Positions 5,701 through 52,596 of a DNA stretch of 64,000 nt are shown one piece after another. The notes under the pieces are model-generated. The model saw only the letters and a list, made by a program, of their open reading frames with translations, was not told where the DNA came from and made no database searches. Both the position numbers and the translations under genes were made by a program. The DNA is from Tetracentron sinense (taxonomy: Eukaryota; Streptophyta; Magnoliopsida; Trochodendrales; Trochodendraceae): positions 6,844,047 through 6,908,046 of the forward strand of contig CM026570.1 in NCBI GenBank assembly GCA_015143295.1, read 5' to 3'. Each line of letters begins with the position of its first letter. The stretch's first letter is position 1.

Positions 5701-8480
5701 CTGGGTCTACCCGACTAACGGATGATTTTGGTAATCTCTTTGTTCTAGCATCCAACGAGGATGCTCTAGTGGAGGATTCTTATAAGAGGAGTTCTTAGGG
5801 AGTGGTTTGGTGTCCGAGGATGCGGAGGGACCTAAACGATTGGAAAAACAGTGATATGTCTCGTCTTCTGGAGCGCATTACCTCGTCTGCCCTTTGTCCA
5901 GAGATTAGGGATTGTAGGATGTGGTATAGAAGCAACCAAGGTCGATTCTCAGTAAGATTTTTGCTACAATCATTATCCCCTATTTTGGGTGAATTGTTTC
6001 CTCATAGGGGTTGTGTGGAATCCGGGAATTCCTTCTAAGGTATCTTTCTTCCTATGGTTGCAACTTTGAATAAAATTCTAACATGTGATCATTGCAGCAT
6101 AGAGAATGGTGTTTGGCTAACCGATGTTTTATGTGCCTCAAAGCGGAAGAGTCGGTGGATCATCTCTTGTTGCACTGACCTGTAATGCAGGAGGTGTGAG
6201 GTTTTTTCTTCTCCCGCATGGGGGTTGCCTGGGTCTTTCCCTCAACCTTTCACAACTTCTTATCTTGTTGGTATTGGGTTAGTGGGGAGGGTGCTTTTGA
6301 GGTGATTTGGGGAGTCCTCCCTGGGGCTATTATTTGGGTGTTTTGGAAAGAGAAAAATCTTAGAGTTTTTGAGGATGTTATCTCTACCTTTCCCCAGATT
6401 TGTGATCGCATCTGGTAGGTTGTCTTGGAGTGGGCAGGGACCTAGTGTAGAGGGCAGGATCTTCGGGATCTTAAGTTCTAATTTGTTCATCCTAGGGGGA
6501 TAGGTTTCGTGTTGCATTTTCTCAGTGTTGAGTTTATACGCCCATAAACTCTGTGGCTGAGTTGTCTCCCTATACTTCTTTCTTCCTCTTAATACATTTA
6601 TCGATCAAAAAAAAAAATTTGAGACCAATTTGGAGTGTGCTGAGATGCACATTAACAGGAGACTATAGTTGACAGCACAACCTTTACCAATAACTATTGT
6701 TCTAGACCTGATTGATTGCATGCTAGCAGCAGTAAGACTACCGTCACCATCTGCTTTAGCTGGGGATGTAAGCAGGTCAGATTTGGAGGAGATCTAGCTA
6801 TGTTCAATCTGAGATCCGTCGGATTCTAAATTTTCCAATTAGAATTCTGATCCGGTTATTTAGTCAAAATCCAAATCAGATCTGCTTAATATTAATATAT
6901 TTAGAATATTTTAATTAAAAAGTGAAATGTTTTATGGGTAGCATTGTAATATATTTACAAAGTTATATTATTATTTTTATTATATATAACGTAATCGAAT
7001 CAAATTTTAATCTAACTGGATCGCTATAGATCCGAATCCGATCCGATTATAATCGAATTCAAGATCTCATATCCGTTTCCGATGCGACGGATCTATAATA
7101 GGATCAAGATCCGGATCTTGATCCAATCCTTTGACACCCTAGTTTTAGCCTATTTTGCACACTGGCAACAGTAATATCGTCTATGACATGCAGTTTACCT
7201 TTTCAAGCATACCGATCTTTCGAATTTTGGGGCAAAATCCCTTTGTACTAGTATTTTGCTATAGTATTCTAATTTCCAGAATTCTGTCAATCTCTTGAGC
7301 ACTAATTATACCTTAGATGATCGAATAAGCTTGCTTTCATGCTCCATATCCGCATGAGCCTAAACTAATTCAGGTCATCCATAAAATACCAAAAAAAATC
7401 TTAGCTAGATCTGTTTGGAACTACATGTGACTTGATTCCACTTTAGTGGATACGTAGGCAACCTTGCTCAGGTTCATGCCCTAGATAGAAAAATTAAGTC
7501 AGTTTTCTTTTTCCTAATTTATTGTTATTTTGTGATAATTGCCATTTTCAGATAGTTTCTATTTCTAGTTTTAGCATATTTCCGTGCTTGTTAGCATGTT
7601 ACTATTCTGGATGAATGATGCTAAAAATCGCCTTAGCATGTTTCCAACTTGATTTGATCTTAGAATTAGCATGTTTCCATTTTAATGCATGATTCTACAA
7701 TAGCATATTATCTAATTTAGTAATCATAATTAGGTTTCTAAAAGTTTAAAGTGGGTTTAGGGAGTAGGTAACCGCCTTTGACAGGTGTCTAAGGGTGCCT
7801 AATACCTTTCCTTATTTCAACCAAATCTCTTATCCAAATCTGTGTCTTAGACCACTTGCCTTAATTATTAATAGATTAGAATTCATATTTTCCCCTAAAT
7901 TAGAATATGTGGCAATTCCATATTTAGTGATTTTCCATTATTCGTTATTCGGATTTCCCAATTTGAAATAGTGCAAAATCTAATGTCCACAAGTTAGATA
8001 CAAGTATTCCATCTTTTCGACTCAAGGTGAGAACATCACTGCAGTGGTTAATAAAACTGGGCAGAGTACAAGAGAACTTACATGTAACTTGTAATGTTCA
8101 CTGCTCGTCCTTGCCGTAGCAGGCGTGGAAACTGAAGGGGACAAGTTTGACGCGGGTGTAACCGGAAGAGAAGTACATCTTTTCCAAGAGAATTCTGACA
8201 GGAAATTGGCAAGGACAGGACTCTCAGGAATGGCCCTGGGGCCTGGACTGAGGAGGGAGCTTCTCTCGCAATCAGGTACAGCCACCTTGTTCTTGAGGCT
8301 TAGACCCCGCCAAAAGCCTTCCAGAGAAGAACCAACTTTTGAGGAATCTTGAAAGTGGGGTAGACCCTTCCCACTACGGCTACTGCCAAAACCTACAGGT
8401 CTAGAAGGTATTTGAAGTGAGAGATCTACTCGCTTCCCATTGGACCCGGAAGGTGTAACTTCTTCACTTGTGGGCTCCAT
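2728..8480 (-). CDS. RING-CH (RINGv) membrane E3 ubiquitin ligase, 3' part missing
   Basis: Four coding exons: 8480-8082, 4291-4171, 3572-3260 and 2800-2728, with introns of phase 0, 1 and 2, all GT-AG and frame-closing (302 residues so far). Residues 1-133 are Ser/Pro-rich. The C4HC3 RING-CH finger has Cys195, Cys198, Cys212, Cys214, His222, Cys225, Cys238 and Cys241, the plant MARCH-like arrangement. A Gln/Ser/Arg linker leads to a hydrophobic segment at about 283-301. Such proteins transfer ubiquitin from an E2 and are usually anchored by several C-terminal membrane segments; here the message ends at a donor (ctg/GTATGC) after the first one. No continuation is seen to position 1, so the rest is either across a larger intron or lost. 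Start chosen at ATG 8480; an in-frame ATG at 8591 is open but precedes a likely intron acceptor (gtgtgcag) at 8495. Intron 1 (3.8 kb) carries a LINE and a hAT-like element. Confidence 0.85.
5533..6626 (+). mobile_element. 5'-truncated LINE (L1-type) with target duplication
   Basis: The body is 5541-6618, flanked by the 8-bp duplication TTGAGACC (5533-5540 and 6619-6626), with an A-tail at 6607-6617 after the family end tttatcgatc. Translated fragments show the C-terminal LINE region: [23 protein letters not shown] and a plant zf-RVT zinc region (about 6120-6180, [15 protein letters not shown] with frameshifts), then [14 protein letters not shown]. Several stops and frameshifts make it dead. 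It sits in intron 1 of the RING-CH gene in antisense orientation. The 17-bp 5' end tcatggactgggtttct is repeated 48 bp downstream. Confidence 0.8.
6753..7149. mobile_element. hAT-like simple-word element (ggatccgat words)
   Basis: The element is 6761-7141, between GCTTTAGC (6753-6760) and GTTTTAGC (7142-7149), an 8-bp target duplication with one mismatch. Ends are TGGGGATGTAAGC and, reversed, TAGGGTGTCAAAGG. The interior is a permuted set of gatccg/cggatc/aatccg words around an AT-rich core. No coding capacity. Lies in RING-CH intron 1. Confidence 0.6.
7737..7990 (+). mobile_element. gypsy-like LTR fragment
   Basis: Contains gggagtaggtaac followed by AAGGGTGCCTAATACC and tttccttattt, matching the order of the copy at 48650-48730 and, in reverse, that at about 430-460. 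Boundaries were not found. It lies in RING-CH intron 1. Confidence 0.35.
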
Positions 8481-9375
8481 AATTTCGTTACTAGCCTGCA
8501 CACAGCAAACACTTTTAGATTTTGTCCAATCATTTGGTATCTCAACTTCAAGAAACAAATAGCAAACAGGAAGATGCACCTTAAACGCCATGACTCTTTA
8601 CCTGATTTAGCATTATATAAGCAAGTTCATTTCCAAAACTTAGCATTCCAGTAGTGCTCATTGAAGTTATAGCTAATAGCATGTATGGGTGGCTTTTTCT
8701 TTTCTCTACTTGAGAGTGTTGGTGTGAGTTCTAGAGTCAAGAGTGTTAGTTGATGCTGAATGAATGTCCACTAACCTAAGCCAATCAATTACTGGGAAAT
8801 CTGCTCCGCCAGATGCAGAGGATGCATATGTCCTACTGGTGCTTGTACAAAGTCCATTATCATGGGTTATTTTGATACTTCCCCACTCATTCGGCCTCAG
8901 TTTCTTCTCGGCAGAATTTCATGTAGTTTGCAGCAGAGCAACACAGAAGAGGATATAAAACAATTGTTATGTACCTTGCTAATCTAAATTCCAGGGGGCT
9001 ATATCCCCAAAGAATCAGCAAAAAGAAACACAAATTACCAAATGAGTGCTCGATATGTAACTCAAGTTGAGAACATCTACTAAAGTTCATCACAGGGCAT
9101 TATTCCATTAATTTGATTTTGTATCTTTTTATCACACTTTCCACTATTTTTTCTCAAGGAAAGTTCCATCATAAAATCTCAGGTATCTAAGTTTGATAGC
9201 TTATCACAAACAAAACCAAATAAAAAAGAAATGCAAAATTACTGAATTGGAATTTGAGATCTCACTCCAATTTCTCATAGATTCCATTAAAATAGAATCG
9301 TAAAGCTTTATTTCTAAAAAAAATTGTACAGTTCAGACTGTTCAATGACTTCTTTCAAAGAAAAATATCAACTAA

Positions 9376-9552
9376 CCCACCAGGGGTTGGTGCAGTTGGC
9401 TAAGCATCTCGGCTTTGCTCCCTGTGGTTGTGTGTTCAACTCCCACTCCTCAACTTACCCAGGTGTCCATATGGAAAATTCTGAGTGGGTTGGTGCAGAC
9501 ACCCAAAGGGACTAGTCCTTGCCTCAAAAGTGTTTGGGACATCCTCTATTAC

Positions 9553-9556
<4 letters not shown>
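9376..9556 (+). mobile_element. tRNA-derived SINE with (AT)n tail
   Basis: Begins ggggttggtgcagttggc, an A-box-like TGGTGCAGTTGG, followed about 40 bp later by a B-box-like GTGTTCAACTCC. The tRNA-unrelated part runs to an (AT)n(CA)n tail. It does not fold into a tRNA cloverleaf, and the head-body-tail layout is that of a plant SINE. Sits in the putative RING-CH leader intron. Confidence 0.5.
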
Positions 9557-9625
<69 letters not shown>

Positions 9626-9634
9626 ACACACACA
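9557..9634. repeat. (AT)33(CA)6 microsatellite
   Basis: Uninterrupted AT dinucleotides to 9622, then CACACACACACA. Open frames reading through it (Tyr-Ile repeats) are artefacts of the repeat. Confidence 0.95.
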
Positions 9635-10560
9635 CATATATATCAACTCAAAAGCTCAGTGATCTCAACTCAATCCCAGAATTCACCAAAACCCTCAAAA
9701 TATTTGCAATAAGTACCAAATGGGTACTCAAGAAATTATTCAATTGAGCATTAAATCAACTAAGATGACACTCCATGGGCATTATTCTTTTAAAAAAAAT
9801 ACCAATTAGCTAAAATAGAAAATAACCCACCAAAAAACTGCAGAAAATGAGATGGGTGCTCCAGAGATAACTTCAATTGATCATAAACGCCACTAAATTG
9901 AAAACCCAGGACATTATTTTTCGTCAAATAGCTCAATATCTATATTTAAAATAAGAACAATCAGAAAAACCAAATGGGTACTCAAAATGTAGCTCCAGTT
10001 CAGCGTAACACCGATTGAAGTATCAATTCAAAGACACAATTCTTCCAAAAAATATAAAACAAGAAAACAAATTAACTTTCTTACTGATTCTCTTTTACTT
10101 CTTCCTGTCAATGGAAACTTTAGAAACCAAGTTCTGGAAACAACTTCTCGAGAATCCTCTACAACTCCATTAGAGACAGCTTCGATTTTGCAATGAATTC
10201 CAAGAGATGAAGGGATTCAAAAGATGTAAAAAATAAAACAACGAGATCTCATATACCTGGGATTGAATTCGAAGACCCCCCCTGCATCTAGTACTAATAT
10301 GGGAGACGACACTGGTCCATTGTAAGACGACGAGAAATTTGTCACGGTGATCTGACGTAGTTGTCGTATTATTATAACTTGCAATAACTTTTTTAGCCTC
10401 ATGGTGGGGCCCTTTTGTAGTTATGAACGGTCTAAACTCGATCAAAAGAAGCCGAACGCGGTAGATATTAATGAGTTCCCAGATCCAACGCGTTGCTTTA
10501 TAATGAAGAAGCTTGAGACAGAGCACTGATGACAAAGATAGGGAAGCAGAAACTTTGGAT

Positions 10561-11291: not shown

Positions 11292-11458
11292 GTCTGGATG
11301 GGGCAACAGCGCTTGCTGTTGGGCATCTTGAAAACATGGGCCCCACATTCAACAAAGGCAGACCCACATCAATATTAGGTGGCCCCCCACAATTTTCAGG
11401 ACACTGACGGGCAACAACGGGCAACAACGCAACAGCTAAAGTTGTTGCCCATCCAAAC
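11292..11458. mobile_element. Small foldback element (MITE-like)
   Basis: Ends GTCTGGATGGGGCAACA and, reversed, GTTTGGATGGGCAACAA, with interior gggcaacaac words. About 167 bp. No convincing target duplication, so class is open. Confidence 0.35.
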
Positions 11459-13662: not shown

Positions 13663-14017
13663 CTTTTGACCAGGGTTACCTAGTTCGCTACCTACTAGTG
13701 CAAACTGCGATTCTACGAACCGGTTTGAAGCGAACCAGTTCGCGGTTCGGTTCGTTTGGGATCGTGAAATTGAGCGAACCCGCTATCCGAACCCAATAGC
13801 TTTGGTTCGGCGAACTTTTTGTTCGGGTTCGGCAAACTTTTGTTTGGGTTCAGCGAATTTGTTCTTTAAGTTCGGCGAACTTATACTTTGAGTTCAGCGA
13901 ATTTGTTTTCTGGGTTCGCAAACCTACCATAAAACCTATTTTTTAATATTTTTTTAAAATAACTTATTTTTTAATGCTTTTTTATAAATAAGTAATTATA
14001 ATATATTTATTGACACG

Positions 14018-14048
<31 letters not shown>

Positions 14049-14193
14049 AGCGAACCAAAGTAAAGAACTAAGCGAACCAAGAAACAAACTATCTCATCCT
14101 ACCCCTGGCGAACCGGGTTCACTCTAGAGTGGCGAATTGCGAACCCGAATTCGAACCGAGCGAACCGACGAACCAGGTAACATTGTTTTTGAC
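13663..14193. mobile_element. hAT-like simple-word element (cgaacc/ggttcg words)
   Basis: Element 13671-14185, with ends CAGGGTTACCTAGTTCG and, reversed, CAATGTTACCTGGTTCG, flanked by CTTTTGAC (13663-13670) and TTTTTGAC (14186-14193), an 8-bp duplication with one mismatch. The interior repeats gcgaacc and gttcggcgaac around an AT-rich core with an (TA)n run at 14027-14047. Non-coding. Confidence 0.65.
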
Positions 14194-17085: not shown

Positions 17086-17141
<56 letters not shown>

Positions 17142-18368: not shown

Positions 18369-21300
18369 CTAATGATTGGCCTCAGGAGCTTGAGCATATG
18401 TAAATCCATCCTGTGAAGCTGAAGGAGCAGTAGTTCCACCTGCAGTTGCCCTCTGTAAACTTGAGCCAGAATTAATATTAAAATTATCAAAGCCTCCGCT
18501 TGTTGGTGTTGCTGGGTTGGCTTGATACATTGCTGGTGTAATCATAGAGGGAGCACCATTAGAAGTGGGGGCTGCAGCACCCCCAGGAACTGTTGGTGGG
18601 GTGTTCATTGTAGGAGGCCTTGGCAGATCATTTACGTGCATGGATAAGTAAGGGGCACCTGGTGGCCCCATCATTGGTGGCATTGTTGGAGCAGCCCCAT
18701 AACCTGCCAAAGCAAATAGAAAGAGATAATGTAATCTATCATTAGTGAAACAGGAAAGACCACAGGTAGTAACATGGTGAGGAACATATTCAAAGTGTTA
18801 GAACTTGGAGTGAGTACAAACATCAAAGCACAGTAACTGCGGAGGAGAATCTGAGTCAGTGGTAGAGAAGAAGCATAATCCTACTTATGGCGTACACAGA
18901 TTACACATGGATGGGGGGCAGAAATGGTGAGCCACCGTTGCAAGGTCGCACCCAGGAGACTTAGGCTGGAACAGCAACCATATTGGATGACCAAATACAA
19001 AACAAACAAACAAAAAAACTTATCTATCGTAGTCTTTGAACCTAGAAGATGTAAGTGATGGGACTCAGTCGAATGATGGATCTTACTACATGCATGCTAC
19101 ATGTACAGCACATTCAAGAAAGTTCTTCCAGTTTTCCCATTCAGGCACAAATTTATCACAATAGCTAAATATCCATTCAAGCAGCAGCTTGATTTTAAAT
19201 ATTTCAATGGCCCACAATATGAGTTCAGTTATATATATATATAGACACGGATATTTTACCCGAGGGATCTCTTCTCTTTTGCTGTTGTATGGATCTGACT
19301 TTGATTAATTATATATATATATATATAGACACGGATATTTTACCCGAGGGATCTCTTCTCTTTTGCTGTTGTATGGATCTGACTTTGATTAATTTATATA
19401 TATATATATACACACACACAATTTTGTGAAACCCTTCCTCTAGCAGCGTATATTTATATCTCCAACAAAATATTTGATCCACCACCTCTAGTTGGGACTT
19501 TAATGTTCATGAAGAAGGAAATGCTAAGTACCGTGAAGCATAGTTAGAAAAATCGGCGAGTCACATGAGTAACTCGGTCAAGTTACTCAACTCGACTGAA
19601 TTTCAAGTCGAGTCGCCTCAAACTCGGAGACACTATTTGTCGAGTTACTCGGGTGACTCAGTCGAGTCGAGTCGAGTCGAGTAGAGTTCTTCAACTCACT
19701 AGACTAGGTCGAGTCACAGAAGGGTATCTTTATCATTTTTTAAAACCTAAACTCGAACGTCATACTATTTTTGCATCATATTTTTTTGGGTTTACAAAGA
19801 CAACCTAATATGTGTTCTGTTAAACCTTTTTTTAGGTTTGAGGTTGTAAAACTAGCATTTTTCGAGTTCCTTTAACCCGGGTTTTTCAAGTTATTACATA
19901 TATATTCCGAGTTGGACTGAGTCGAGGTTTTTTCGAGATTTCCGGGTTTTTGAACCATGACATGAAGAACAATTTGTTTCTTCAGCTTGTTTTGTTTTGT
20001 TACTTTTTTATCAGCACTGGCTGTATTGATGTACCCAAAAACAAAGTAGATTGACTTGCCCACTTTGCACTGTTAGAGATGTCCTCAAGATCAAAACCCG
20101 CAGATTTCAAGTAAAACCATTTTGCTGTTGCTTGGCATATTGGAGCTAGAGCTTTAATGTTTCCGTTTCTGACCCTCCCCTTTAAAACGCCAGAAAGCCT
20201 TTTCTAGGTGGAGTGGTGTACTCCTTGTCTCTCGAGACCATATGTAAATCATCCAAAAAAATATTCATAATAGTTAATACCAAGTTCAGATTAGATCATG
20301 TGAATGCGCTAAGGTTAGAAAACTAGTCTAAAGTTCTTTCTGTGGCTATGGGGCTATAAGTCAGGGAAAACTATCCACTGAACTGATCACAAGGGAACTT
20401 GCATGAAATCCTGTTCATTTGATCCTTCCAAGGCCATTAATGGTGTAATTCACCCGGAAAGCCGAAAATTCATTGGATCTAAACAATCACAAGAGATCCA
20501 TAAACCTCAAGCAAGTCCCCTCATGCAAATCATAAGACCTAACAAAGGTTTCTTTCGTTTCATTTTTTTTATCAGTTAGACCTCAATCAGGATTCATGTT
20601 GCCGATGATAACTGATAAGCCCCAACCATTGCTGCCTACTAGCATAGCTACCAAACCCCGTATTTTTTTTTTAATTGATAGACCAAGCAACTATATACAT
20701 AAATAGAGTATCACACGTACAAAAGAGCATAGAGCGCATGGTTCATGATGTTGTGAACCAATGCAAGATGCAAAAAGTAAACAAAACACACCATGCTAAG
20801 CCCCAAATAGAAACCCCACTGACAATACATATCAGGCAAACATCATGCCTAAGCTCACCCCTTCCTGTCTTACTGAAACCCACTCCACTTCCAACGACAT
20901 GGTTCTATTACAAATACGGGGAAGAGAGGAGGGAGAGTTCTCGAAAACTCTCCTATCCCTCTCCTTCCAGATCATAGTTACCAAGTCATGAAGCGAAGCG
21001 AAAGCGGGAAGCGAAGCTCAAAAAATCCTTAGGAAACTGGAAGCGAGAAATAGATATAGGTGCATCATTCTCATTATGTTAGGATGACCAATTATACCTT
21101 AAATTTTATTTTATATGAGATATTTGTGAAGAAGTAGGTGCTTTAGATTCTTAGGTTTCAATTCAACGATACTTGCCTAGGATATATGTCATAGGCTTTA
21201 GACTCAGGTCTATCCCATTATTTCCTAAATAGGAAATTCATGACTCCCTTGACCACTAAATGAGAAGCGAGTGGAAGCGATTCTGGGAAACGAGCTTCCT

Positions 21301-24300
21301 GGGAAGCGAGCTTCCCACCTTGTACATAGCTTCCCGGCAACTATGTTCCAGATAGACCAAGTTATGGCACCCGGTAGTATCTTCCACAACGCCAACATCG
21401 ATCCTTCCCCACTTACCAAATCCCAGCAGGATAAGAAGTTGTAAAAGGATGAGGGAAAGACCCAGGTCATGCCCATGCGGGAAAGAAAAAAGCTCTAGAT
21501 CTCACGAGCTAAAGGGCAATGCAAGAAAATGTGATCTACCAACTCTTCCACTTTGAGGCACATAAAACAACGATTAGTCATCCTCCACCCTCGGCTTTTC
21601 AAATGATCACATGTGAGAATTTTATTCAAAACCGCATTTCATAGAAAAAAAGATATTTTAGATGGAATATTTGGGTTCCACACAGCTCTATGTGGAAAGA
21701 GGGCAGAAGGACCAGCTTCAAGTAGCTGAACTAAAGATCTCACTGAAAAAAGACCCTTGTTGTCTCTAGACCAAACTCTACAATCCCAGCCCTGAGAAAC
21801 CGAAGGGAGAGCCCCCAGATGCTCTAGCAGCCTGCCAAACTCAGCTATTTCCCTGTCATTTAACCCTCTTCTCATATTGGGACACCACACTACCCCTCCG
21901 CTGCCTCTTTCGATATAATCCCCGACTGTCGCCTTCTTGTTCGAAGCTAACCCCATATTATACCCGTATAATAAATTTAGAAGGGGTCGCAGTTTAAAAC
22001 GACGTACTTTTGCCATTTATGTATTATATATTTATATGTGTATTGTCGTATAACGGTATAATACGCAAATTTTGAATTAAACGTGTACAGGACGCATATT
22101 TTTGCCACACTTTTACCATGTTAAACACACATTCATTATTCCGTATTTTTGCCATGCTTTTACCATGTTAAACACACATTCATTATTATGTATTAAATGG
22201 TCGTTATTAGTTAATATTATGATTCTTTATTTATTTATAATTATTAATTATCTTTTGATTTTCCTGTACTTTTCCGAGTATTTGCCGTATAACACCCATA
22301 CTTCCCAAACAGATCATTGACGTATCATACATGCACCCGTACCCATACTTGGTAATTATGCCTACTAGGATAAGCAGCAATGGTTATCAAGGCACCAAAG
22401 CAGACTATTCTGAAGGTAACATGTAGTCTCCCAGTACCATCCATCAATTTCAAAGTGCTTAAACTTTTTAGCAGTTCTTTGTTCCACAATGGTTGACAGC
22501 CAAATGTAGCAGTGAATTAGTTAATAAGAGTTGTACATGTCTGTCATGGAACCAATGTCCCAATGTGAACTACTGAAAGAAGCTGAATTTGACGTAGCAC
22601 AGTAGGATGATTCATGCCCCATGTCAGCCTGCCCTCTGTGGCATATATACAAGTAATCAACCAATCAATCAAGAACATCTCTTGTTCCAAAACCAGCCAT
22701 GGTGAGTTTAAATATCTGATGAATGGGCCTTCATTAGGACTGTTGATCCATGACCAAAAATTGAATGTTGTGGTGCCAGCTACATGCCTGTCACACATAT
22801 TGAGGAAAGAAAGAGGCAGAAGCACCAAATATTATGCTGAACTTCAATTAAATACAGCCTCAACTACAGTAGCAATAAGTAAACATTGGGCAAGAACGTG
22901 AGATCGTGAGCATCAAAGAACTGGTAAAGTGAATCATGCATCAGTTTACTGAATGGACTATACAGCTTGCAGAGAAGTTGTCATCAAAAATGAGTACCTA
23001 TAAAGAAGCAATAAAGATCTCTATATGTTTCGATTTACCTGGAGCACCAAGAATAGGTCTTGGCAAAACAGGAGGCCTCATCCCGGGGACTAATGGTGAA
23101 TTCATTGGTAACACAGGTGTTGGTAGAATAGGCATACGGGGTCTTTGAGGATTGCCTTGCAAAGAAGCAAGATGTTGGTTGTAAGCTGCACCAACTTGCT
23201 GGAATGCTGCGGTTTGCCCAAGATGCTCCTTGATCCTCTGGTCAATTAAACTTTGTGTTTGTTGCTCCTCAAATTGCTGATAATAGGACCGTACATTTGC
23301 CTGAGGTGATGTATAGACTCAGAATTCAAGTCACAGCAAGATGGGGTTTATGTACACCTAAAAGGCTAAAAGAGTGTTCGTTTTTTAATTTTATACGTAA
23401 TACCTTGTGTTTGTAGCCTGCATTGTGCTGCTTTCTAACAGAAGGCTGCAATCCAAGAAGAGATGGATAGAAATAAAAAAAATAGTTATTTTTAATTCAG
23501 TCGTAAGGAGAATTTAAACATACGGCTGCCTCAGAAAATGAATATTCTAAGGACTTACACAAACAACAGCCATAACACTACAGCATTAAAATCATAGTGT
23601 TTTTTGACAGAAAGGCAAGGCAATGCAATGCAAGGATTAAGAAATGAAAAGGAGACAAAGATCCTTGAAAACCAGATAATGGAAAGAAATTGAACATGAG
23701 CAATAAAATCAGTGTTTTTTGACAGAAAAATAAGGCAAGGCAATGCGAGGATTAAGAAATGAGAAGGAAACAAATAGATTTGTGAGAACCAGATAATGGA
23801 AAGAAATTGAAGATGGCCAACTTTTGTAGACCACAAGAAGTTCTATATTTGGGCCAACTTTTGTAGACCAAAAGAAGTTCTATATTTGGGTTTCAATATC
23901 AAGATAAGTAATTAAATATATCAGGTTATAATCAGTCAAGTGCAGGAATTACAACAAGAACAATTTCTTTACTTACATAGACTACAGCTTTCTTTTTATT
24001 GGTAACTACATAGGCTACAGTTACGAGACAGAGTTGGATTAAGACTACATGTCATGATACTTGAGACTGCATTTCACAATCTTTGGTCAAGATTCACAGC
24101 TTAACTAATGGTGAAGATGGGAATAATAACAACAATTACAACAGAAAAAAGGACGCTAATAAAGGTTTTTTTTATTGATAAGAATGCTGATAAAGTTAAC
24201 AGCATTAACCAAGTCCTTCACCATAATATGCAATAATTCTATCTCGATAGAGATATCCGAGGCCCTTTTAATTGCTTTCTTAGGTTCCATTTCCTTGTTA

Positions 24301-27892: not shown

Positions 27893-28196
27893 GGTGGTGT
27901 TTGGTAACACTAGTCTAAAAAAAGTGCTTATTTGAAAATTATGCTTCGTTAGACTTTAGATTGTTAAGTCGAAGGTTAAGTGCATGTCTACATTTTAGAG
28001 ATTTTAAGGGTAAAAACTTTTACTTAAAAAAGTAGCTATGGGGTAAAAACATCAACTTTAAAAAGTAGAGGTTTCTACCCCTAAAATCTCTAAAATGTAG
28101 ATATGCACTTAACCTTCAACTTAACAATCTAAAGTCTAACTAAGCATAATTTTCAAATAAGCACTTCTTTTTAGACCAATGTTACCAAACGTCACC
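27893..28196. mobile_element. Foldback MITE with about 120-bp inverted arms
   Basis: Ends GGTGGTGTTTGGTAACA and, reversed, GGTGACGTTTGGTAACA. The arms (about 27893-28014 and 28075-28196) are near-perfect inverted repeats, for example ttagactttagattgttaag facing cttaacaatctaaagtctaa, with a short centre that is itself partly palindromic. GGTGNNGTTTGGTAACA resembles hAT/Harbinger-type MITE ends; no clear target duplication. Confidence 0.75.
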
Positions 28197-28360
28197 TTTA
28201 ATCAGTGTTCAAGGGCAATTAAAGGGGCTCTGCAATCCTCTTATCGCACCTTTAATCAGAGTTCAATGGCAATTAAAGGGGCTCAATAAGCTCCTCACCC
28301 CGGGAGAGGATTGCAAAGCCTCTTTAATTGCCCTTGAACTTTGATTGCAAAGCCACTACC
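28197..28360. repeat. Second foldback repeat
   Basis: The phrase ctttaatcagtgttcaagg with ggcaattaaaggggctc occurs twice in direct order (28197 and 28251) and once inverted (about 28309-28356: gaggattgcaaagcctc, ttaattgcccttgaa). It can form a hairpin immediately next to the MITE at 27893-28196. Confidence 0.6.
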
Positions 28361-33522: not shown

Positions 33523-34059
33523 GTCCCGTACAAGGTTTGAAATTTAGAAATCTCAATGATTTCGGTTCTCCAACCCAAACCGAAATTTCGGAAATTTTGG
33601 ATTTATCGACGAAATTTTAGAAATCCTGGTTTTTTTAAAAATATTTCATTAAATTAAATATATTCATAATATTTCATATAATTGCGGCCAAAATTTTGGA
33701 ATATTTTGTAAAAAATAATATTTTATTAAAATTTAAAATATTTATATAATATTACAATTTTAGTATTTGAATTCTTTTTTTTGAAATTTCACGAAAAAAT
33801 TGATGAAAGTTTTGGCATATTTTGGAATATAATCAAAATAATAATAATAATAATAATAAACTGTTTAAAAATAAAATTTTGAGATTATACCGATATTCTG
33901 AAATTTCAGAATTTCAAAATTTCACATGAGATTTCCGATATCTCGATCAAAATTTGTATTTCCAAAATAACAAGTAAATCAATATTGGGGGTGGGAATGA
34001 AATTGGGATTTCATGAAATTTCACAAAATCCCAATGAGATTTCAAACATTGATCCCTTC
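33523..34059. mobile_element. hAT-like simple-word element (gaaattt words)
   Basis: Element 33531-34051, ends CAAGGTTTGAAAT and, reversed, CAATGTTTGAAAT. Flanks GTCCCGTA and ATCCCTTC match at only 5 of 8 positions. The interior is tiled with gaaatttcgg, aaatttt and gagatttc words and an (AAT)n run at 33838-33860. Confidence 0.5.
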
Positions 34060-34987: not shown

Positions 34988-37900
34988 ATGGCGGAAGGGG
35001 AAAAAACCCTAAAGTCCAGTGGAGAGAGCGTAAAGCTCTTCGTCGGTCAGGTTCCCAAGCATATGACCGAAGCTCAGCTTCTCTCCATGTTCAAAGAGGT
35101 CGCTTTGGTAGATGAGGTCAATATCATTAAAGACAAGACCACTCGGGCTTCACGAGGTTCGGAAAATTCAATCTCGAGCTCATATTTTTTGTTTTATATC
35201 TGCATTTTGTTATTCTGTTCTGTGTTTTCGGCGGATCGGGAATGTGTGATCTGAGCGATTTCTTCTACCTGGTCGCAGAAATTTTGATTGAGAACGTCTC
35301 TCTGAATGTTTTGAAACCCTAATTTCCTTATTTTCTCATTTGGTTTTACAGGATGTTGCTTTCTGATCTGTCCGTCGAGGCAGGAAGCAGATAATGCAGT
35401 CAATGCGTGTCATAACAAGCGAACGCTTCCCGGGGTGAGTTGGATTTCGATCTTCTCTCTCTCTTAATAGATTCCACTGGTCCAAATTTGCGTTGTGATG
35501 TGATCAATTAGGGGTACTTAGCGTGGAATGTTGATTTCTTGGATGTACTAGTGTTTTTTGTATGGTCAGAGAAGAAATTGAGCTCTGGTTGTTGATCTAG
35601 TACTGTTTGGGGTTGTTCTTATGGTTTGAAACCGGGGTTGTCTGTTGTATCTATTGCACATTGACATTATGTTTCCGTGACTGATTGGATAATACTAAGA
35701 GAAACAATAAAATGGCAATGAAGATAACAATAGCCCAGTTTGGGAATCATAAGCAAAGAGGCATAATCAAAACTAGCGAACTGTGTCCCAATTGGCATCA
35801 TGGTTTAAAATTCCGGTACGTATCAGCCATTACGTATCCTGTTTGGAGTTACCCGGTACACTGATACGCTGGAAAAAAAACTCCTCCGTATTGGGTGTAT
35901 TGGGCCGGTACATGACCGCTATGCCTGATACGGGGGATTTCTCAGGTTAATTTTTTTTCCTTCTATTTGCCATAGGATCCACAACACCGACCCGATACAC
36001 ACAACTTATTTACCTAAAAAAATTATTTAAGTAAATGATTTTAAATTAATTTTATTTTCATTTACTTAAGATATTTATATGTAAATAAGGTTATACCCCT
36101 ATTTGAGTTCAATAAAAATTACCGTTGAGCAGAGGCGTTGAGTAGAATGCTCTCGTGAGCAAGATGAACAATTTTTGAGGGATTTTCAGTGGGTCAGGAG
36201 CAACTCCAAATCTCGCATCTACAGCTCGCAGATGATACCCTCATATTCTGTACAGCCTCATGTTGGCAAATAACTTACCTCAGATGCATCATGCGATGTT
36301 ATGAGGCGGTGTTTGGGCTGAAAGTCAACCTTGGGAAGATTGAAGAGTGAGATGATCAGTGTAGGGGAAAATCCAAATCTAGGTGATTTAGCAGCTTGTT
36401 TAGGGTGCCAAGTCGGTTCTCTTCCCTCGACCTATCCGGGGCTCTCCTTAGGAGCCAAATTCAAGTCAAAGGATGCCTGGTTGCTAGTGGTTGAACGTTT
36501 CGTGTCTAGGTTAGCTGGGTGGAAAGCTCAGGTCCTCTCGAAAGGGGGTAAGTTGACGCTGATTAAAAGCACCCTTAGAAACCTTCCCACATATTTTCTT
36601 TCCACTTTCACCATCCCACGCAGTTTAGCAAAATTTTTGGAACGAATTAAGAGGGAGTTCTTGTGGAATGGAAAAAGGGTGGACACCTCGTTACTATCTA
36701 GTGGCTTGGGACCAGGTGTGTAGCCCCCAGCGAAGGGGTGGGCTTAACCTTAAACCATTGGTAGCAATAAACAAGGCTATTCTAGGAAAATGGGTATGGC
36801 GGTTTGGGGAGGAAAGGGAGAGTTTTTGGCTCAAAGTGATCATTGCTAGACAATGTTTTAAAACCTAGACTGGACACTAACCCAGTCAAGGGGTCGGGTT
36901 TGTCCAAACCGGTCAGACCGTCGGGTCAATCCGGGTTGACCCAATGACACTAAGTAATGTCATAAAATATTTAATATTAATAATTTTTCCTATATTAATA
37001 GATTTGATTCGTGAGTTAGTGGGTTTATATAAGGGGTTTTATCTTTTCCGTACTGGTACCCTTGAGAAAATTTGAGAAACACCATACTAAATGGGTACGC
37101 TATAACAAGGAGGAATTTGAGAAACACCATACTAAGGGGTTTTATCTTTTCCGTACTGCAAGCATCATACATTATGCAGGGAGGAATTTGAGAAACACAA
37201 CACATGAGAAAATTTATAAACCATATACGAACCCTTCACAATAATCGGCCTGGTGGAAATTTTAAACTATCTGAACTGTAGACCAATGACTTTTGGGTGG
37301 TCGGCTTCTTTCCGTGTGAGGGTTCCAATTTAAAATTTATAAAGCATAATACTTTCTCGTTTATAAGAGAGAACTCTTATCTTGTTAAGAGTTATCCTCC
37401 ACGCTAAATGGGTATGCTATCACAGACAAACCTTCAAAGAGGAAGCACGTCTTGAAACCAATGAAAAATCCCGATTATGAACTAATTAAAAAAAAGAGAT
37501 TATTATACAAAATTAAGTAAAAAAAAACATATATGAACCCTTCAAATTAATAGAAAAAAAAAAGTTTGATCTCACCTCACATTGGATTGAGTTCTCTCTA
37601 TCTCCAATCTCCTCTCTTTCCTACGTAGTATTTTCTTCTTCTCTAGGGTTTTGTTTTAACCCTTTCTTTTATTTAATATATTGTGTTTTAGAATAAATAA
37701 GTCAAAAAGGACCTTTTTCTATGACCCAAGGTCCCAAACGGTTCAACAAAAATCGCCCGGGTCGACTGGGTCATGCCGGTTTGGGCGGTTTTCATTGGGT
37801 CATCCCGGTTTTGGTATTCAACCTACCAAAGGATCAACCCAACCCACTAAGGTTACAGGGTCTCGGGTTAACCGGTTCAACCCACCGGTTCGGTCCAAGT

Positions 37901-40398
37901 TTTAAAACACTATTGCTAGGCATGGCCAATCATTGAGTGGGAACCCTATGCCAGTTAGGGGTCCTTGTGGGTTGGGTTTGTGGAAAGGGATAATGGTGGT
38001 GGCCAGTATGCTACCATTTATCACTTTTAGAGTGGGTAATGGTTTGGAAGTTCAATTCTAGCAGGACGTATGGTGTGGTGAGGGGAGTCTCTGGTCTAGG
38101 TTTGTCAACATCTTTCGTCTGTCGTTAGACAAGTCAGCATCAGTAGCGGATTGTTTGGAATGGTCCAATAATGAGTATGTTTGGTGCCCACACTTGAAGC
38201 GCCCGCTGAATGATTGAGAAATGACAGAGTTTTGTTTTTTCTTCAAGCCCTAGAATCCTGCCCAATGTATAGAGACTCACAGATTTGGATTAGAGATAAC
38301 AATGGTCGGTTTTCAGTGAGATCATTGCTACAATCTTTTGAGTTGCCCTCACCTTGCTCTTTTCCTATTGCTTGCTTTGTTTTTTGGGGATTCACAATTT
38401 GTGAATCTTCCTCTCTATTTAATGAAATTGCTATTACCGATCTAAAAAAAAAAAGTCGCTTTCTTCCTGTGGACTGTAGTCCTGGATAAAATTCTCACAT
38501 GTGACAATCTGAAAAAAGAGATTGGATGATGGCTAACCAATGGTACTTGTGCCTGCTCGCGGAAGAGTTGATGGATCACTTATTGTTGCACTGTCCCACT
38601 GCTTATGAGATATAGGGTTACTTTATTGATCGGGTAGGGGTGCCCTGGGTCTTTCCTAAATCTTTCCGGGATTTTTTATCTTGCTGGCCTCGAGCAAGTG
38701 CGGGTGACAACCAAGCGGCAGTTTGGTTTGTGCTGCCAGGGGCCATAGCTTGGGCGCTATGGAAGGAGAGGAATTATAGAGCATTTGAGAATTCCCCTTC
38801 TTTGATCCCACGCATTTGCGCATGCATAAGGCACTCCATTTCGGAATGGCTATCCATTAGTTGCACATCTACAATTCTGGGCGAAAATGTCATCTATAAT
38901 GGCGCATAGTATAGCTTAGGTTCATGACTTCATCTATTTCCTTGCCTTGTTGTAGTGTAATAGTTATATGCTTAGCTCGGGAGGTTACTTCTCGGTAACC
39001 TCTAAGTTTTAGGACGTATCTTATCTTTTTCTGATTATATATATCTTGATTACCGATAAAAAAAAATTTAAAAGTTAACTTTCCAGTTCAAGAACAAAAT
39101 CATCTTTTTAGCACCTTTTATTGATTAGGTCAAAATTTCAACTTGACAACTTCAAATGATAAGGTATTTCTCAAATATTAAAATTTCATAAATTCTACTG
39201 ATCAAAAGTTATTCAAAACATTACCGAAACCCAAAAATTTGGCAAACAAAGTCTCATATATTAGCCTTCAAAATATTTTCATCTACGGGGTCAAAAAGTC
39301 AACCAACAATGTAACAATTCAGCATGAAAAGACTTACATTCAAGCTTATAATTTTTGTTGTAATTCAATATATTCTTATTTAACTCATTGAATGTAAGGT
39401 TTTAACATCTAGATTGTATTATCTATACTTGGCTAAGTAATTATGGTTTGTAATTTTCATACCTGTTTATCAACTCTCATATGAATGGTTAGAACATAGT
39501 TGGAGGCCTTCATTTAGTTTGATTTTAGCTTATATCTGTTTTAAAAGAACTTTTATTCAAGATATCCAAGTTTTTCCTTGCGTATCAAAGCATTTCTTAG
39601 CGTCTCTTAATTTTTTCCGCCGTATCCATCAAATACGGTCTGATACTCCAATACATATCATGTTTTGGACTTACTAATACGGCACCCCATACGATATTTT
39701 GAACCATGATTGACATACCAACTACCAAACGTATGGATGAACCATGTGTGTATGGTTTAATAATTTTTTTTTGATTTGTAAGTAGCAGATGTATTTATAA
39801 GTCAAAAAGTATAACAACAATCTACAGAGATGTAAACAGATAGTGTCTAGCAAGCATGAAAATAGGACAAACAAGAAAGATATACGACTAGTACAGAGGC
39901 TGACTCCTCACAATAATAAAATATCCCTCACTTCCTGACCCAACTGACTTGTGGAACTCCATTTTTGGTTTAATAATTACATTTGGAACAATATTGTGCT
40001 TGCTTTATGTCAGCTTCTTTCCAAATAGAAGTTCTGAATTGAAGGTGACTCTTATGAGAGTTATCTGTACTTGAAGAAGGCTGTTCTCACATGCCACTTT
40101 CTTGTTCTCTCTGTTGATCTTATCTTTTGTCTTCTTTTGAGATAGGCTGAATCTCTACCATTCACAAGGAAACCGATTTTAGAGCGTAAGTGTTAAAAAT
40201 GTTGGTGTAGCGTCAATATATTTAGTCGTGAAACCATATACTAGTTTCTAGCTCTTCCTCTTTGGATATTGCATCCTCCCCATCAATGATTAAACTTTCC
40301 CACTAACATGGTATAAGAATGTGCATCCCTCGTCTCAATGGAGCCATGAACTACTTCTTGAGTTTTCTACAGTTTCGTGCCAATCATCAAAGGAGAAC

Positions 40399-49400: not shown

Positions 49401-50576
49401 TCCAAATACTGATTCGACACAGCAACCTTCATTATTTGGGGCCCTGCCAATGGGTTATATTCCTCCATATAGTGGATTTGGTTATCAGGTTTGTTTCATT
49501 ATTGATTTTTAGTTCTGAGTCATGTCAAGTCATGACATGCATAAGCTGATAAGCCTAATTTGTGGATTTGCCTTGTATTTGCACAACGGATCTTGAAACT
49601 TAAAACGTTGTGGCAGAGCTTGAGCCTCACAGTATCCTTTCTCTTTACTTAAAATTCCATTAAAATCCAGCCTTGATGTTTCTTTTATTTACTGCATCAC
49701 TAGGCCTTTGTTGTTTTAACATTGTGGAGCATAATGAAGTCAGGAATCTGGTGATCATCTTGTTTTCTTTGTAGGCACCTGGAACTTATGGACTAATGCA
49801 GTACCGCCTACCACCAATGCAAAATCAACCTGGTTTCCACAATATGATTCCATCAGTAAATCAAGGAAATGCATTGCATGGAATTACACCTGATCTTTCC
49901 GCCGGTATTGCTCCTAGAAATTTTGCAACATTGCCATCTGCGAGTTATATAGGCGCTCCATATCCTATGGTGCCTGGTCCTCAGTATCCTATGGCCTATC
50001 ATGGTGGAATGATGAGTCACAGACCTTTGAGTAGTTCCCCTGGTTCAGTGTCACCTGCAATTGTGAACAGTAACTCAGCAACATCTTCAAATGTAAGCGC
50101 AAGTTCAGGGGTTCAGGTTGAAGGTTGGTAAAAAAAATAATGTGGCATTCTTGTGGTTCTTTTTAAGGTAAAGTCTTGATGCTTGTTGCAATATTAATTA
50201 TTTTTCATCTTCTGTTGAACTTAGGTCCTCCTGGCGCTAATCTATTTATTTATCACATCCCTCAAGAATTTGGTGATCAAGAGCTCGCAAATGCTTTTCA
50301 AGCATTTGGCAGGGTGTTGAGTGCAAAGGTCTTCGTTGACAAAGCCACTGGTGTCAGCAAATGTTTTGGTAAACAGATTATCTATTCTCCTTTGGATCTG
50401 GGATGAGTTCTGTGGAATTCTCTACCTCAAATCAGCCTCTATTTGCAGGATTTGTCAGTTATGACTCTCCAGCAGCAGCTCAATCTGCCATTAATGTGAT
50501 GAATGGATGCCAGTTGGGTGGTAAAAAGTTGAAGGTACAGCTTAAGAGAGACAACAAACAGAATAAACCTTATTGA
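34988..50576 (+). CDS. Bruno/CELF-like RNA-binding protein (BRN1/BRN2 type), complete
   Basis: Nine exons: 34988-35156, 35352-35434, 40695-40746, 40927-41052, 41197-41276, 49306-49488, 49775-50123, 50225-50368 and 50449-50576; 1314 nt, 437 aa, every junction GT-AG and in phase. Three RRMs: RRM1 with RNP2 LFVGQV (17-22) and RNP1 RGCCFLIC (56-63); RRM2 with LFVGML (105-110) and KGCAFLKY (143-150); a Pro/Gly/Met/Ser-rich linker (about 171-348); RRM3 with LFIYHI (354-359) and KCFGFVSY (393-400). This two-plus-one arrangement and the length match Arabidopsis BRN1/BRN2 (about 430-440 aa), which bind the SOC1 3' UTR and restrain flowering. That function is inferred from the family. Start: first ATG in frame with RRM1, preceded by an in-frame open leader. 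Intron 2 (5.3 kb) and intron 5 (8.0 kb) are swollen by transposons. A donor (GGAG/GTAAGT) follows the stop at once, so a 3' UTR intron is possible. Confidence 0.95.
36843..37920. mobile_element. hAT-like simple-word element (gggtcaaccggt words), nested in LINE
   Basis: Element 36851-37912, ends CAATGTTTTAAAAC and, reversed, TAGTGTTTTAAAAC, flanked by TTGCTAGA (36843-36850) and TTGCTAGG (37913-37920). Ends are rich in ccggtt, gggtca and ggttgaccc; the core repeats gaatttgagaaacac and tactaaatgggtac phrases (37060-37200). Removing the element plus one duplication joins LINE fragments WLKVIIAR and HGQSLSGN. Confidence 0.75.
38365..38451 (+). mobile_element. Very short LINE 3' tail nested in the LINE
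   Basis: The frame runs from an S-rich FPIA region into tctctatttaatgaaattgc and taccgatc followed by an A11 run, then resumes with FLPVD. The inserted piece matches the LINE 3' end style (ccgatcaaaa), so it reads as an 85-bp dead-on-arrival LINE copy. Confidence 0.5.
40402..40444. repeat. (TA)n microsatellite
   Basis: Pure TA dinucleotides in BRN-like intron 2, about 250 bp before exon 3. Confidence 0.95.
42090..43839 (+). mobile_element. gypsy-like LTR remnant, left part, split by copia element
   Basis: Non-coding sequence with a TATA-type box (cctataaataacccc, about 42760) and a continuation beyond the copia insertion at 48482-48870, where gggagtaggttatg and GGGGTGCCTAACACCTT match the gypsy-like motif at 7790 and 450. 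Holds a 100-bp tandem duplication (about 42541 and 42641, with ttaagtaaaagaaaaagc). Boundaries and strand are inferred. Confidence 0.35.
43840..44287 (+). repeat. 5' LTR of copia element 1
   Basis: Starts TGTTAAGTGATGG and ends CGATTCCCAACA. It includes a 12-bp C run (43962-43973) that the 3' LTR lacks. Confidence 0.85.
44326..48004 (+). pseudogene. Copia gag-pol polyprotein remnant
   Basis: Gag starts [17 protein letters not shown] (44326) and soon frameshifts. The zinc knuckle near 45025-45065 reads [14 protein letters not shown] and lacks its first Cys. The protease motif reads DSDAS instead of DSGAS (about 45195). Integrase fragments: [25 protein letters not shown], then a 21-G run (45924-45944) at the SDNGGEY position. 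Reverse transcriptase: [36 protein letters not shown], stop at 46848, and YVDDM intact at about 47043. RNase [11 protein letters not shown] and [11 protein letters not shown]. At least six stops or frameshifts, so no functional product. Confidence 0.85.
48105..48481 (+). repeat. 3' LTR of copia element 1
   Basis: Same termini as the 5' LTR; shorter by about 70 bp, with lost segments in the first third. Confidence 0.85.
48482..48870 (+). mobile_element. gypsy-like LTR remnant, right part
   Basis: Continues the sequence interrupted by copia element 1. Includes gggagtaggttatg and GGGGTGCCTAACACCTT, then ttaaaggaatctcttaccc, parallel to the fragment at 7737-7990. Confidence 0.35.
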
Positions 50577-51990
50577 TGCTGGAGGTAAGTTATGGAAGGA
50601 AGCAGAATTCTCTACCATATGTGGTCACATGCAACCTCGATGCTTGGGAGTGGTTGCAATATAAGCCAGAGATTGGGGTGGATTGGAGATATTAATGGTT
50701 ATATATGCTACTCCATTCTACTGATAGTTTCCTTGTGGGATTGGAATCCCTGAAACCTCATTGGTGCATTCTACACCAGTATAATCTGTAATTTATGTAC
50801 CATTGAATTTCATTGACATATTAATTTATTGATTTTTTCCTCGAGCATTCCTTGGTGGTATAATGCTGGGGCAACAGTCATGTAACATGGCTGTTTACTG
50901 TTTTTTAAATTTGGGTTCTCTCAATTTAATGACCAGATTTTTCACTGTTGAAATATGTTTTGGGAAAGTATGATTATCTCATGCAGTGTATCTCTCACAA
51001 GTCTGTTTTTCTCCCGGGTGTGTGAGCTCAGAGTGTTGAGTGTACTCTATCATTGTTCATTCCCTCTTTCTTCCTTTATGTAAACCTTTCTTTCCCAAAT
51101 CCATGTGATGTATCTGTGAAGTTGTTGGACATGTTGAGAAGCCACTACAGGCGTTCTTCCTGTCCAAGCAATGTCCATAAATGGGTTTTCAAAGTCCAAA
51201 GTTATGTGAAGTGATTTGTTTATCATGTTGTTTCTGTTGAAGACACGTTTCGTTTTGCAGTGACTCCTCAGGTATTGTGCATCTTTTGTGTGTTGATGTC
51301 TTGTCATTGTTGTGAGTATATTTTGTACTTCCGTTTCTTGTTTTGGTAACTCAGTCATGCCCTAAGATTCAGTACAGGAGTTCAGGCCATGCATGAATCC
51401 CGGAGAATGTTCTGCGACATGTAATTTGTTATCCTCCGTCCTGTCTCATTGTTAAGGAACCTTACTCTACTTTCGTTGCAATCTGACTGATTTGACATAT
51501 TGGGTGACTTTTTAAATAAATATCCTGCATGCTGATCTTCTCTCTGTTATCCATTTCAGGATATAGGAGAAGCATTGTCTGTAGGGTTCATCTGGTTATG
51601 ATGCAGGTACTGTTGAACGAGTTTTGGCTTGTATTTTTTTTACTTTTATCGAGCGTATTTATCTGTCTGTTGATGTTATATACTTTCATGAACATTGTAA
51701 TTGTTGTTGAGTATTTCTTAGACTCTATATCCAGACATAGTGGAAGATTTTTTTTATTTTTTTATCTCCCATGAATATGGCATGTTCTGAAGTTCGCATT
51801 GAAAATTTGGAAGTGAATTTGTGATCAAGAGACAACTTGGAGTTAGGTATTAATCGATTAAACCTTCATTTTTGTTACTGCATAATGCTTAGATGTAACA
51901 TTTAAGTATTTGGCTTTTGTTAATTCTCCCTAACAAAGCATGTACAATTGAGATACTGTCTGGAACTTTAGGATCACAACTTCACTTGCA
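50577..51990 (+). other. 3' UTR and downstream flank of the BRN-like gene
   Basis: Follows the TGA at 50574-50576. A strong donor GGAG/GTAAGT lies at 50583-50590 and a pyrimidine-rich acceptor-like ttcgttttgcag near 51260, compatible with a 3' UTR intron. No second gene is recognised. Confidence 0.4.
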
Positions 51991-51997
51991 GATCGAA

Positions 51998-52067
51998 GGA
52001 GCTTTGTATCAGCCAACTTACATTTTATATAAGGAGCTTTGTATCAGCCAACTTACATTTTATATAA
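51998..52067. repeat. 35-bp perfect tandem duplication
   Basis: The unit ggagctttgtatcagccaac followed by ttacattttatataa occurs twice in succession. Confidence 0.9.
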
Positions 52068-52149
52068 TAATATGTTCTAATTTTTTTCAGTTCCTCACTT
52101 TTTCTTCTATATACACCCCGCCTCTTGCTCTAATGGTGGGGTGTGGCCT

Positions 52150-52596
52150 CTTTCAAGCATAGTTACCAGAGTGAGAAGCAAAGTGAAAAAGAGAAGCGGG
52201 AAGCTCAACTCAAAAAAACCTAGGAAAGGGGATGTGAGAAATGAGATATAGGCTCCTCATTCCCATTATGTTATTATGGGTAGTAATACCTTTGATTTTA
52301 CCTTACATGAGATTTTTGTGGAATAGTAGGTGTCTTAGGTTCCAAACCGACGATACTTGCTTAGAGTCTACACCCTAAGCTATAGACTGTGGTCTATCCC
52401 ATCACTTCATACATACAACTCCCTTTGACTACTAAATGGGACATGATGGAAGCGAGTTTCCTAAGAAGCGAGTCTGTATGAGGAAACGAGCTTCCTAAGA
52501 AACGAGTCTGTTCGAGGAAACGAGTCTAGGAAACGAGCTTCCGGGGTAGCGAGCTTCCCAACCTATACATAGCTTCCCAACAACTATGCTCTCAAG
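52150..52596. mobile_element. hAT-like simple-word element (gaagcg words), second copy
   Basis: Element 52158-52588, ends CATAGTTACC and, reversed, CATAGTTGTT, flanked by CTTTCAAG (52150-52157) and CTCTCAAG (52589-52596). Colinear with the copy at 20973-21345: aagcgggaagctcaa, the core with catgagatttttgtg and taggttcc, then cgagcttcc arrays and tacatagcttccc. The word arrays have changed in copy number between the two. Confidence 0.8.

What the first reader, a model, noticed from the sequence alone, without database searches (positions are those of the whole stretch)
6753..52596. Elements with one terminal grammar but different simple-word interiors
At least eight bounded elements (6761-7141, 13671-14185, 19539-19959, 20643-22360, 20973-21345, 35799-39708, 36851-37912, 52158-52588) share 10-14 bp inverted ends of the form CANNGTTNNN or TAGGGTGTNAA and 8-bp target duplications (two perfect, five with one mismatch, one 6 of 8). 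Each interior is tiled with its own short word and that word's inverse (gaagcg, gagtcg, cgaacc, cgtat, ggatccgat, gggtcaaccggt). Seen directly: ends, duplications, words. Known: 8-bp duplications and CA-starting ends are typical of hAT transposons, and Arabidopsis has catalogued non-autonomous hATs with simple-sequence interiors. Inferred: one transposase family mobilises many lexically different elements, and the words may be transposase-binding arrays that diverged by slippage or conversion.
Basis: partly seen in the sequence, partly recalled or inferred. Interest (0 to 1): 0.75.

Follow-up and report, generated by a model that had tools for sequence, protein, structure and literature searches.

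The report
hAT elements with family-specific subterminal words
The window holds at least eight cut-and-paste DNA transposons (hAT type) of a plant that have similar tips but different short repeated words just inside them, and full-length relatives elsewhere in the same genome carry such words together with different transposase genes, as expected if each word is a docking site of its own transposase.

Summary
The eight elements are real: ends and 8-bp duplications are as stated (two 8/8, five 7/8, one 6/8), and flanks match at length 8 only. Words lie mostly near the ends; they exceed shuffles in 6 of 8 elements, not clearly in E4 and E7. E5 and E8 are one family.

In the window's own 1.16-Gb genome, fetched copies of E5, E2 and E7 have duplications of 7/8 or 8/8 in 20/20, 14/20 and 8/10. 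An interior-free pattern gives 12 facing pairs among 100 listed places, 0.01 expected.

Five 4.1-4.5-kb hAT elements with 8/8 duplications carry words at both ends: ATCCGA and AGGGCC share a tip but have different transposases; AGGCG has another tip. E1 is related to the ATCCGA element at both ends; E3's word recurs at the 3' end of a hAT gene.

Verdict: mostly non-autonomous hAT elements; the words behave like transposase-lineage-specific subterminal repeats, as in Ac and Tag1. "One transposase, many words" is not supported. Known mechanism, rich natural series; binding is inferred.

The parts
6761..7141 (.). E1: 381-bp hAT-like element, word ATCCG/GATCC, ends TGGGGATGTAA/TAGGGTGTCAA, duplication GCTTTAGC/GTTTTAGC (7/8)
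   Evidence: reverse-orientation relative of the 4.1-kb ATCCGA element at both ends (66% over 271 bp, E=3e-23; 66% over 212 bp, E=1e-17; low-complexity filter off)
13671..14185 (.). E2: 515-bp element, word CGAAC (22 copies), CpG o/e 1.82, duplication CTTTTGAC/TTTTTGAC (7/8)
   Evidence: 40 scored of 2730 candidates; 14 of 20 fetched copies, this one included, with duplications of 7/8 or 8/8
19539..19959 (.). E3: 421-bp element, word ACTCG (15 copies, mostly in the left half), duplication CCGTGAAG/ACATGAAG (6/8)
   Evidence: 40 scored of 2487 candidates; same word and a related 3' end at a hAT gene, L088
20643..22360 (.). E4: outer element, duplication CCTACTAG (8/8), weak CGTAT-type word; split by a LINE-like insertion (about 20661-21940, minus strand, limits read by eye)
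   Evidence: word enrichment not significant (p 0.20)
20973..21345 (.). E5: 373-bp element, word GAAGCG, duplication TTCCAGAT (8/8), nested in the insertion inside E4
   Evidence: a related copy of the insertion at 38459-38818 runs across the site without the element; 20 of 20 fetched copies, this one included, with duplications 7/8 or 8/8
33531..34051 (.).
   Evidence: word test not significant; the genome search for it did not complete
35799..39708 (.). E6: outer element, word ATACG/CGTAT at both ends, duplication ATTGGCAT/ATTGACAT (7/8), split by a LINE-like insertion (about 36131-39069, limits read by eye)
36851..37912 (.). E7: 1062-bp element nested in the insertion inside E6; TGACCC x5, AAACCC x5, AACCG x8; duplication TTGCTAGA/TTGCTAGG (7/8)
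   Evidence: 40 scored of 486 candidates; 8 of 10 fetched copies, this one included, with duplications 7/8 or 8/8
52158..52588 (.). E8: 431-bp second copy of the E5 family with a 67-bp stretch of extra word-bearing repeats, duplication CTTTCAAG/CTCTCAAG (7/8)

Best explanation
These are hAT transposons, the short ones non-autonomous (MITE-like), of several families. Each end has two signals: a short tip of one of two grammars (CANNGTTNNNAA or TAGGGNTGTCAA), where cutting and joining occur and an 8-bp duplication is made, and inside it an array of a family-specific 5-6-base word, in both orientations, most likely the binding site of the BED zinc fingers of that family's own transposase. Full-length hAT elements in the same genome carry such words at both ends and encode the transposase; the short elements keep the two ends with little or nothing of the gene. 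The tip stays alike across families while word and transposase diverge together. Shown: boundaries, duplications, copy families, a related copy of E5's host insertion without E5, full-length elements with words at both ends, same tip with different word and different transposase, sequence links of E1 and E3 to transposase-bearing relatives. Inferred: that the words are bound by the transposase, that binding is word-specific, and that these relatives moved the window's copies.
For: Duplications of length 8 only. Copies with tip-only boundaries: duplications of 7/8 or 8/8 in E5 20/20, E2 14/20, E7 8/10, against 4/380, 6/380 and 2/90 with swapped flanks. Interior-free genome test: 12 facing pairs against 0.01 expected. 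Full-length: ATCCGA on C11 (4119 bp) and C2 (4166 bp), tips 12/12; AGGGCC on C7 (4148 bp, tips 11/12) and C8 (4176 bp, 10/12); AGGCG on C13 (4469 bp, 12/14); duplications 8/8 in all 5 examined. Words in outer 340 bp against middle: 21:3, 24:3, 16:2, 16:2, 11:1. Pfam zf-BED, hAT-like_RNase-H and Dimer_Tnp_hAT in the two TAGGG-type proteins scanned; zf-BED and DUF659 in the AGGCG one. Near block-diagonal word matrix. Precedent, seen as passages: Ac AAACGG repeats bind the transposase (PMC3260210); Tag1 TGACCC and AAACCC, and Herves with another motif (PMC3143072); Hermes BED domains bind repeated AAG(T/C) (PMC10368747).
Against: No binding or movement assay. E4 and E7 words are not clearly enriched in the window copies. 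Partners were seen for two of the window's words only (E1, E3); for E3 only the 3' end, and a pattern search found no exact match to the expected 5' end there. The score linking E3's right end to that 3' end (100.5; shuffle maximum 77) is not unique: E7's left end (75.5 against 59.5) and E2's right end (62.0 against 50.5) also exceed their shuffles. No partner was found for GAAGCG, CGAACC, CGTAT or E7's words; of 150 scored hits each, 30 hAT-dimerisation loci and 3 DUF659 loci were read. In E2 copies 63% of words lie in the outer 120 bp against 46% if uniform; E3's words are lopsided. E1's genome matches mostly cover its inner part (about 45-352 of 381) at 72-79% identity. The word matrix has exceptions (E2 holds AACCG x7, which overlaps its own word; E8 holds ACTCG x3). 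Lower BED identity (35%) than core identity (44%) rests on one pair. In the cited work, mutating some Hermes repeats left about 70% activity and its right-end repeats were not seen bound, and some Ds1 elements without the hexamer still move.
Confidence: 0.83

Rival explanations
1. One hAT transposase recognises only the shared tip and mobilises elements with any interior; the words are incidental.
For: Tips are alike across word families, and maize Ds1 elements share little with Ac beyond the 11-bp tips, some moving without the hexamer (PMC3260210, passages).
Against: The same tip carries different words on elements with different transposases; words are concentrated at both ends of full-length elements; the genome has 1709 and 1783 first-look candidates for two hAT domains, so a single enzyme need not be assumed.
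Confidence: 0.09
2. The words are products of replication slippage or conversion with no binding role.
For: Local tandem arrays in E2 and E8 and a 67-bp repeat expansion in E8 relative to E5.
Against: The same word occurs at both ends, in both orientations, about 4 kb apart in full-length elements, and hardly between; spacing is irregular.
Confidence: 0.05
3. The words are host transcription-factor sites spread by MITEs, as described for E2F sites in Brassicaceae (PMC12595863, passage seen).
For: MITEs can amplify factor sites.
Against: Each family has its own word, also at both ends of transposase-bearing elements, where subterminal binding sites are expected; no factor motif was tested here.
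Confidence: 0.04
4. CpG in the words acts as a methylation switch on transposase binding (an addition to the main explanation, not exclusive with it).
For: CpG o/e 0.62-1.82 in the 8 elements against 0.48 for the window; 1.67-2.03 in 20 E2 copies; 2.1 and 1.5 at the ends of the ATCCGA and AGGCG elements. Ac's word AAACGG holds a CpG.
Against: 24 of 135 control tiles also reach 0.62. AGGGCC holds no CpG and its elements' ends are CpG-poor (o/e 0.38). In E1, E2, E4, E7 and E9 the ends are no richer in CpG o/e than the middle.
Confidence: 0.2

Closest known systems
Maize Ac/Ds (PMC3260210, passages seen)
   Same: Short tips, repeated hexamer AAACGG in the outer 200 bp that binds the transposase; short Ds forms keep tips and some repeats. 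E1 and the ATCCGA and AGGGCC elements have Ac-like tips (the Ac tip letters and its 8-bp duplication are recalled).
   Different: Other words; two words behind the same tip in one genome with separate transposases.
Arabidopsis Tag1 (described in PMC3143072, passages seen; the original papers were not held)
   Same: TGACCC and AAACCC words, each 5 times in E7; tip CAATGTTTT recalled as Tag1's.
   Different: No Tag1 protein was compared; the AGGCG element with a similar tip uses another word.
Herves and Hermes (PMC3143072, PMC10368747, passages seen)
   Same: Transposase binds short repeated subterminal motifs; BED fingers shown for Hermes; the motif differs from one hAT to the next.
   Different: Animal elements, different motifs.
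Arabidopsis SIMPLEHAT of Repbase (the name occurs in 12 papers of a search listing; nothing else seen)
   Same: By recall, short hATs with simple-sequence interiors.
   Different: Sequence not available here; not compared.

Membership tests
hAT superfamily | 8-bp target duplication | tested here: met
   Length-8 specificity; genome copies; 5 of 5 full-length elements examined 8/8
hAT superfamily | short inverted tips beginning CA/TA | tested here: met
   E1's left tip begins TG and matches its right tip in only 6 of 14
hAT superfamily | transposase with BED finger, RNase-H-like core and C-terminal dimerisation region in full-length relatives | tested here: met
   Two lineages; BED and DUF659 for the AGGCG lineage, whose dimerisation part was not scored. 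Coding in the window's own elements was not tested (one search was turned back)
hAT superfamily | mobilised by a hAT transposase | not testable with these tools
   needs an excision assay
MITE (non-autonomous, short, high copy) | short, repeated in the genome with defined ends | tested here: met
   366-429 bp (20 E5 copies), 486-543 bp (20 E2 copies), 1012-1062 bp (10 E7 copies); 3667, 2730, 2487, 907 and 486 first-look candidates for E5, E2, E3, E1, E7, 40 scored in each
MITE (non-autonomous, short, high copy) | derived from a full-length element by internal deletion | tested here: inconclusive
   E1 is related at both ends to the ATCCGA element; E3's right end resembles a hAT gene's 3' end; no partner found for the others
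Tag1 lineage (for E7) | Tag1 words and Tag1-type transposase | tested here: inconclusive
   Words present; no transposase of this family seen
SIMPLEHAT | sequence similarity to the Repbase entries | not testable with these tools
   Repbase not held

The most novel reading that the evidence does not exclude
The tip is a constant catalytic address and the subterminal word a swappable identity tag: in one plant genome at least eight words (ATCCGA, AGGGCC, AGGCG, ACTCG, each seen next to a transposase; CGAAC, GAAGCG, CGTAT, GACCC/AACCGG, seen on short elements) sit behind two tip types, and BED fingers change faster than the core to keep lineages from mobilising each other's elements. The genome would then be a natural set of matched finger-word pairs from which BED-finger recognition could be read.
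Probability: 0.45. Interest if true: 0.65.

Novelty: new member of a known kind. Interest (0 to 1): 0.42.

Why it matters
Subterminal repeats are known from a few hATs studied one by one. Here one genome offers several families with the same kind of tip but different words and, for some, long open transposase genes. That makes two questions testable: what DNA a BED finger reads, and what stops related transposons from using each other's enzymes. It also warns that such arrays may be taken for microsatellites or unrelated MITEs.

Tried and rejected
Rejected: the end motif alone as evidence (81 against 83 expected). Three extra end-plus-duplication places (2701-4990, 28177-29644, 49614-54200): taken as chance because of their number in shuffles; the second starts at the edge of a fold-back element of another type, the other two were not examined further. 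'All words contain CpG': rejected because AGGGCC does not. One pattern in viral contigs: no hit. Paper searches: for end sequences (228 papers, 30 listed, none whose title concerns hATs) and for word diversity or subterminal repeats (the listings of 26, 47 and 106 were capped); by title and start of abstract none describes many words behind one tip in one plant, but subscription papers are mostly not held. L086 (a DUF659 locus) did not reach the element's 3' end. Of 30 hAT-dimerisation loci, 6 (L043, L047, L052, L056, L065, L068) showed no TTGACANCC-type end in 1.5 kb downstream and no strong word of their own. The 5' end of the ACTCG copy on C7 was not found by pattern (that pattern had 15 matches elsewhere against 2 for its control).
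Full report
Observation. I re-derived every boundary. The flanking 8-mers match 7,7,6,8,8,7,7,7 of 8 for E1-E8. Over lengths 5 to 12, only length 8 matches (0.86 for nine elements; 0.20-0.30 otherwise); the elements were partly chosen for this trait. The end motif alone is not in excess.

Anatomy. In most elements the words lie towards the ends around a word-poor centre; E3's are mostly in its left half. In the outer 120 bp, tips excluded, the commonest 5-mer occurs 4-13 times in the eight elements and at most 5 times in 119 control segments. Shuffles (500) never reach the observed count for E1, E2, E3, E5 and E8, rarely for E6 (0.000 and 0.006), in 5-10% for E7, 20% for E4 and 11-59% for the added E9. 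E5 lies in a LINE-like insertion that split E4, and E7 in one that split E6 (called LINE by eye from poly-A tails, mutual similarity and translations, without a family scan). A related copy at 38459-38818 runs across E5's site (67% identity, 5 gaps in 363 columns): a paralogous empty site. For E7 a gapped alignment to a copy at about 15 kb spans the join (score 73.5, shuffle maximum 31), which is weaker.

Families in the genome. The window is part of a 1.16-Gb assembly. E5, E2, E3, E1 and E7 have 3667, 2730, 2487, 907 and 486 first-look candidates, 40 scored in each. With boundaries set by the tips alone, duplications of 7/8 or 8/8 flank 20 of 20 E5 (17 perfect), 14 of 20 E2 (9 perfect) and 8 of 10 E7 copies (6 perfect), the window's own copies included, against 4/380, 6/380 and 2/90 with swapped flanks. 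Fetched copies were the best-scoring ones, which favours intact elements. E1's matches mostly cover its inner part, few reach the tips. An interior-free pattern, GTTYAAAC followed by CANNGTTNNNAA, has 118 matches against 25 for the reversed pattern; among the 100 listed, 12 are facing pairs bounding 380-1096 bp, with none divergent or parallel and 0.01 expected.

Full-length relatives. A search for the hAT dimerisation domain gave 1709 candidates, 150 scored, 30 fetched with flanks. Of the 30, 3 had ATCCGA and 21 AGGGCC-type words downstream, 6 neither; 24 ended in a TTGACANCC-type tip. For two of each word I read the other end: 4119 and 4166 bp with ATCCGA, 4148 and 4176 bp with AGGGCC, all four with 8/8 duplications. 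The open frames are 670 aa (C11), interrupted on C2, and 717 aa on C7 and C8. A DUF659 search gave 1783 candidates, 150 scored; three loci were read. One is a 4469-bp element with tips CAGTGTTTTAAAA/CAATGTTTTAAAAC, duplication CCCCGGAC 8/8, the word AGGCG and a 582-aa frame. At another, the stretch downstream of the DUF659 hit holds a dimerisation-like exon (recognised by eye) and a 3' end with nine ACTCG words and the tip CAGTGTTCAAAAAC, close to E3's word and right tip. The third did not reach the end.

What follows. Words are a property of transposase-bearing elements: 21 of 24, 24 of 27, 16 of 18, 16 of 18 and 11 of 12 lie in the outer 170 bp of the two ends. Two lineages share the tip TAGGGCTGTCAA (one base off in the C8 copy, and TAGGGGTGTCAA at the right end of the AGGGCC elements) but differ in word and transposase (44% identical; BED 35%, core 44%, dimerisation region 65%). 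Words are nearly mutually exclusive among elements. E1 aligns in reverse to both ends of the ATCCGA element. The simplest mechanism is that of Ac, Tag1, Herves and Hermes: BED fingers of several transposase subunits grip repeated words inside the tip, and the core cuts at the tip (PMC3260210, PMC3143072, PMC10368747; passages seen). The same papers warn that not every repeat is needed or bound. Binding in this genome is inferred.

Limits. E4's and E7's word claims rest on weak statistics in the window copies, although genome copies of E7 repeat the words and concentrate them towards the ends (56% and 68% in the outer 120 bp against 23% if uniform). E2 copies are less concentrated (63% against 46%).

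Verdict. Real and well seen, and explained by a known mechanism; the claim of a single transposase is not supported. The value lies in the series: same tip, different word, different enzyme.

Noticed in passing
1-270: Array of ggaaac/gtttcc words (8 non-overlapping in the first 400 bp), possibly an E5/E8-like element cut by the window start.
   Followed up: partly
27895-28198: Fold-back element with 117-bp arms, 91% complementary, ends GGTGTTTGGTAACA-like; not of the type described here.
   Followed up: no
52883-58387: Probable LTR element on the minus strand: repeats 52883-53079 and 58178-58387 (91-93%) enclose Copia-like polyprotein fragments (recognised by eye).
   Followed up: no
43840-48481: Second probable LTR element: repeats 86-90% alike about 4.2 kb apart around a Copia-like reverse-transcriptase fragment at 46513 (by eye).
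   Followed up: no
L056, last 1500 bases: Another end of this grammar, CAAGGTTCTAAATGTCGATATCG, followed by a GATATATCGG array: a further word.
   Followed up: no
L015 and G000:C4:34487192-34487638: An E5 copy lies about 1 kb from a DUF659 hAT fragment.
   Followed up: no
L001-L040 flanks: Target sites lean to GTT..AAC-like sequences: T at position 2 in 11 and 14 of 20, A at position 7 in 15 and 14 of 20 (E5, E2).
   Followed up: partly
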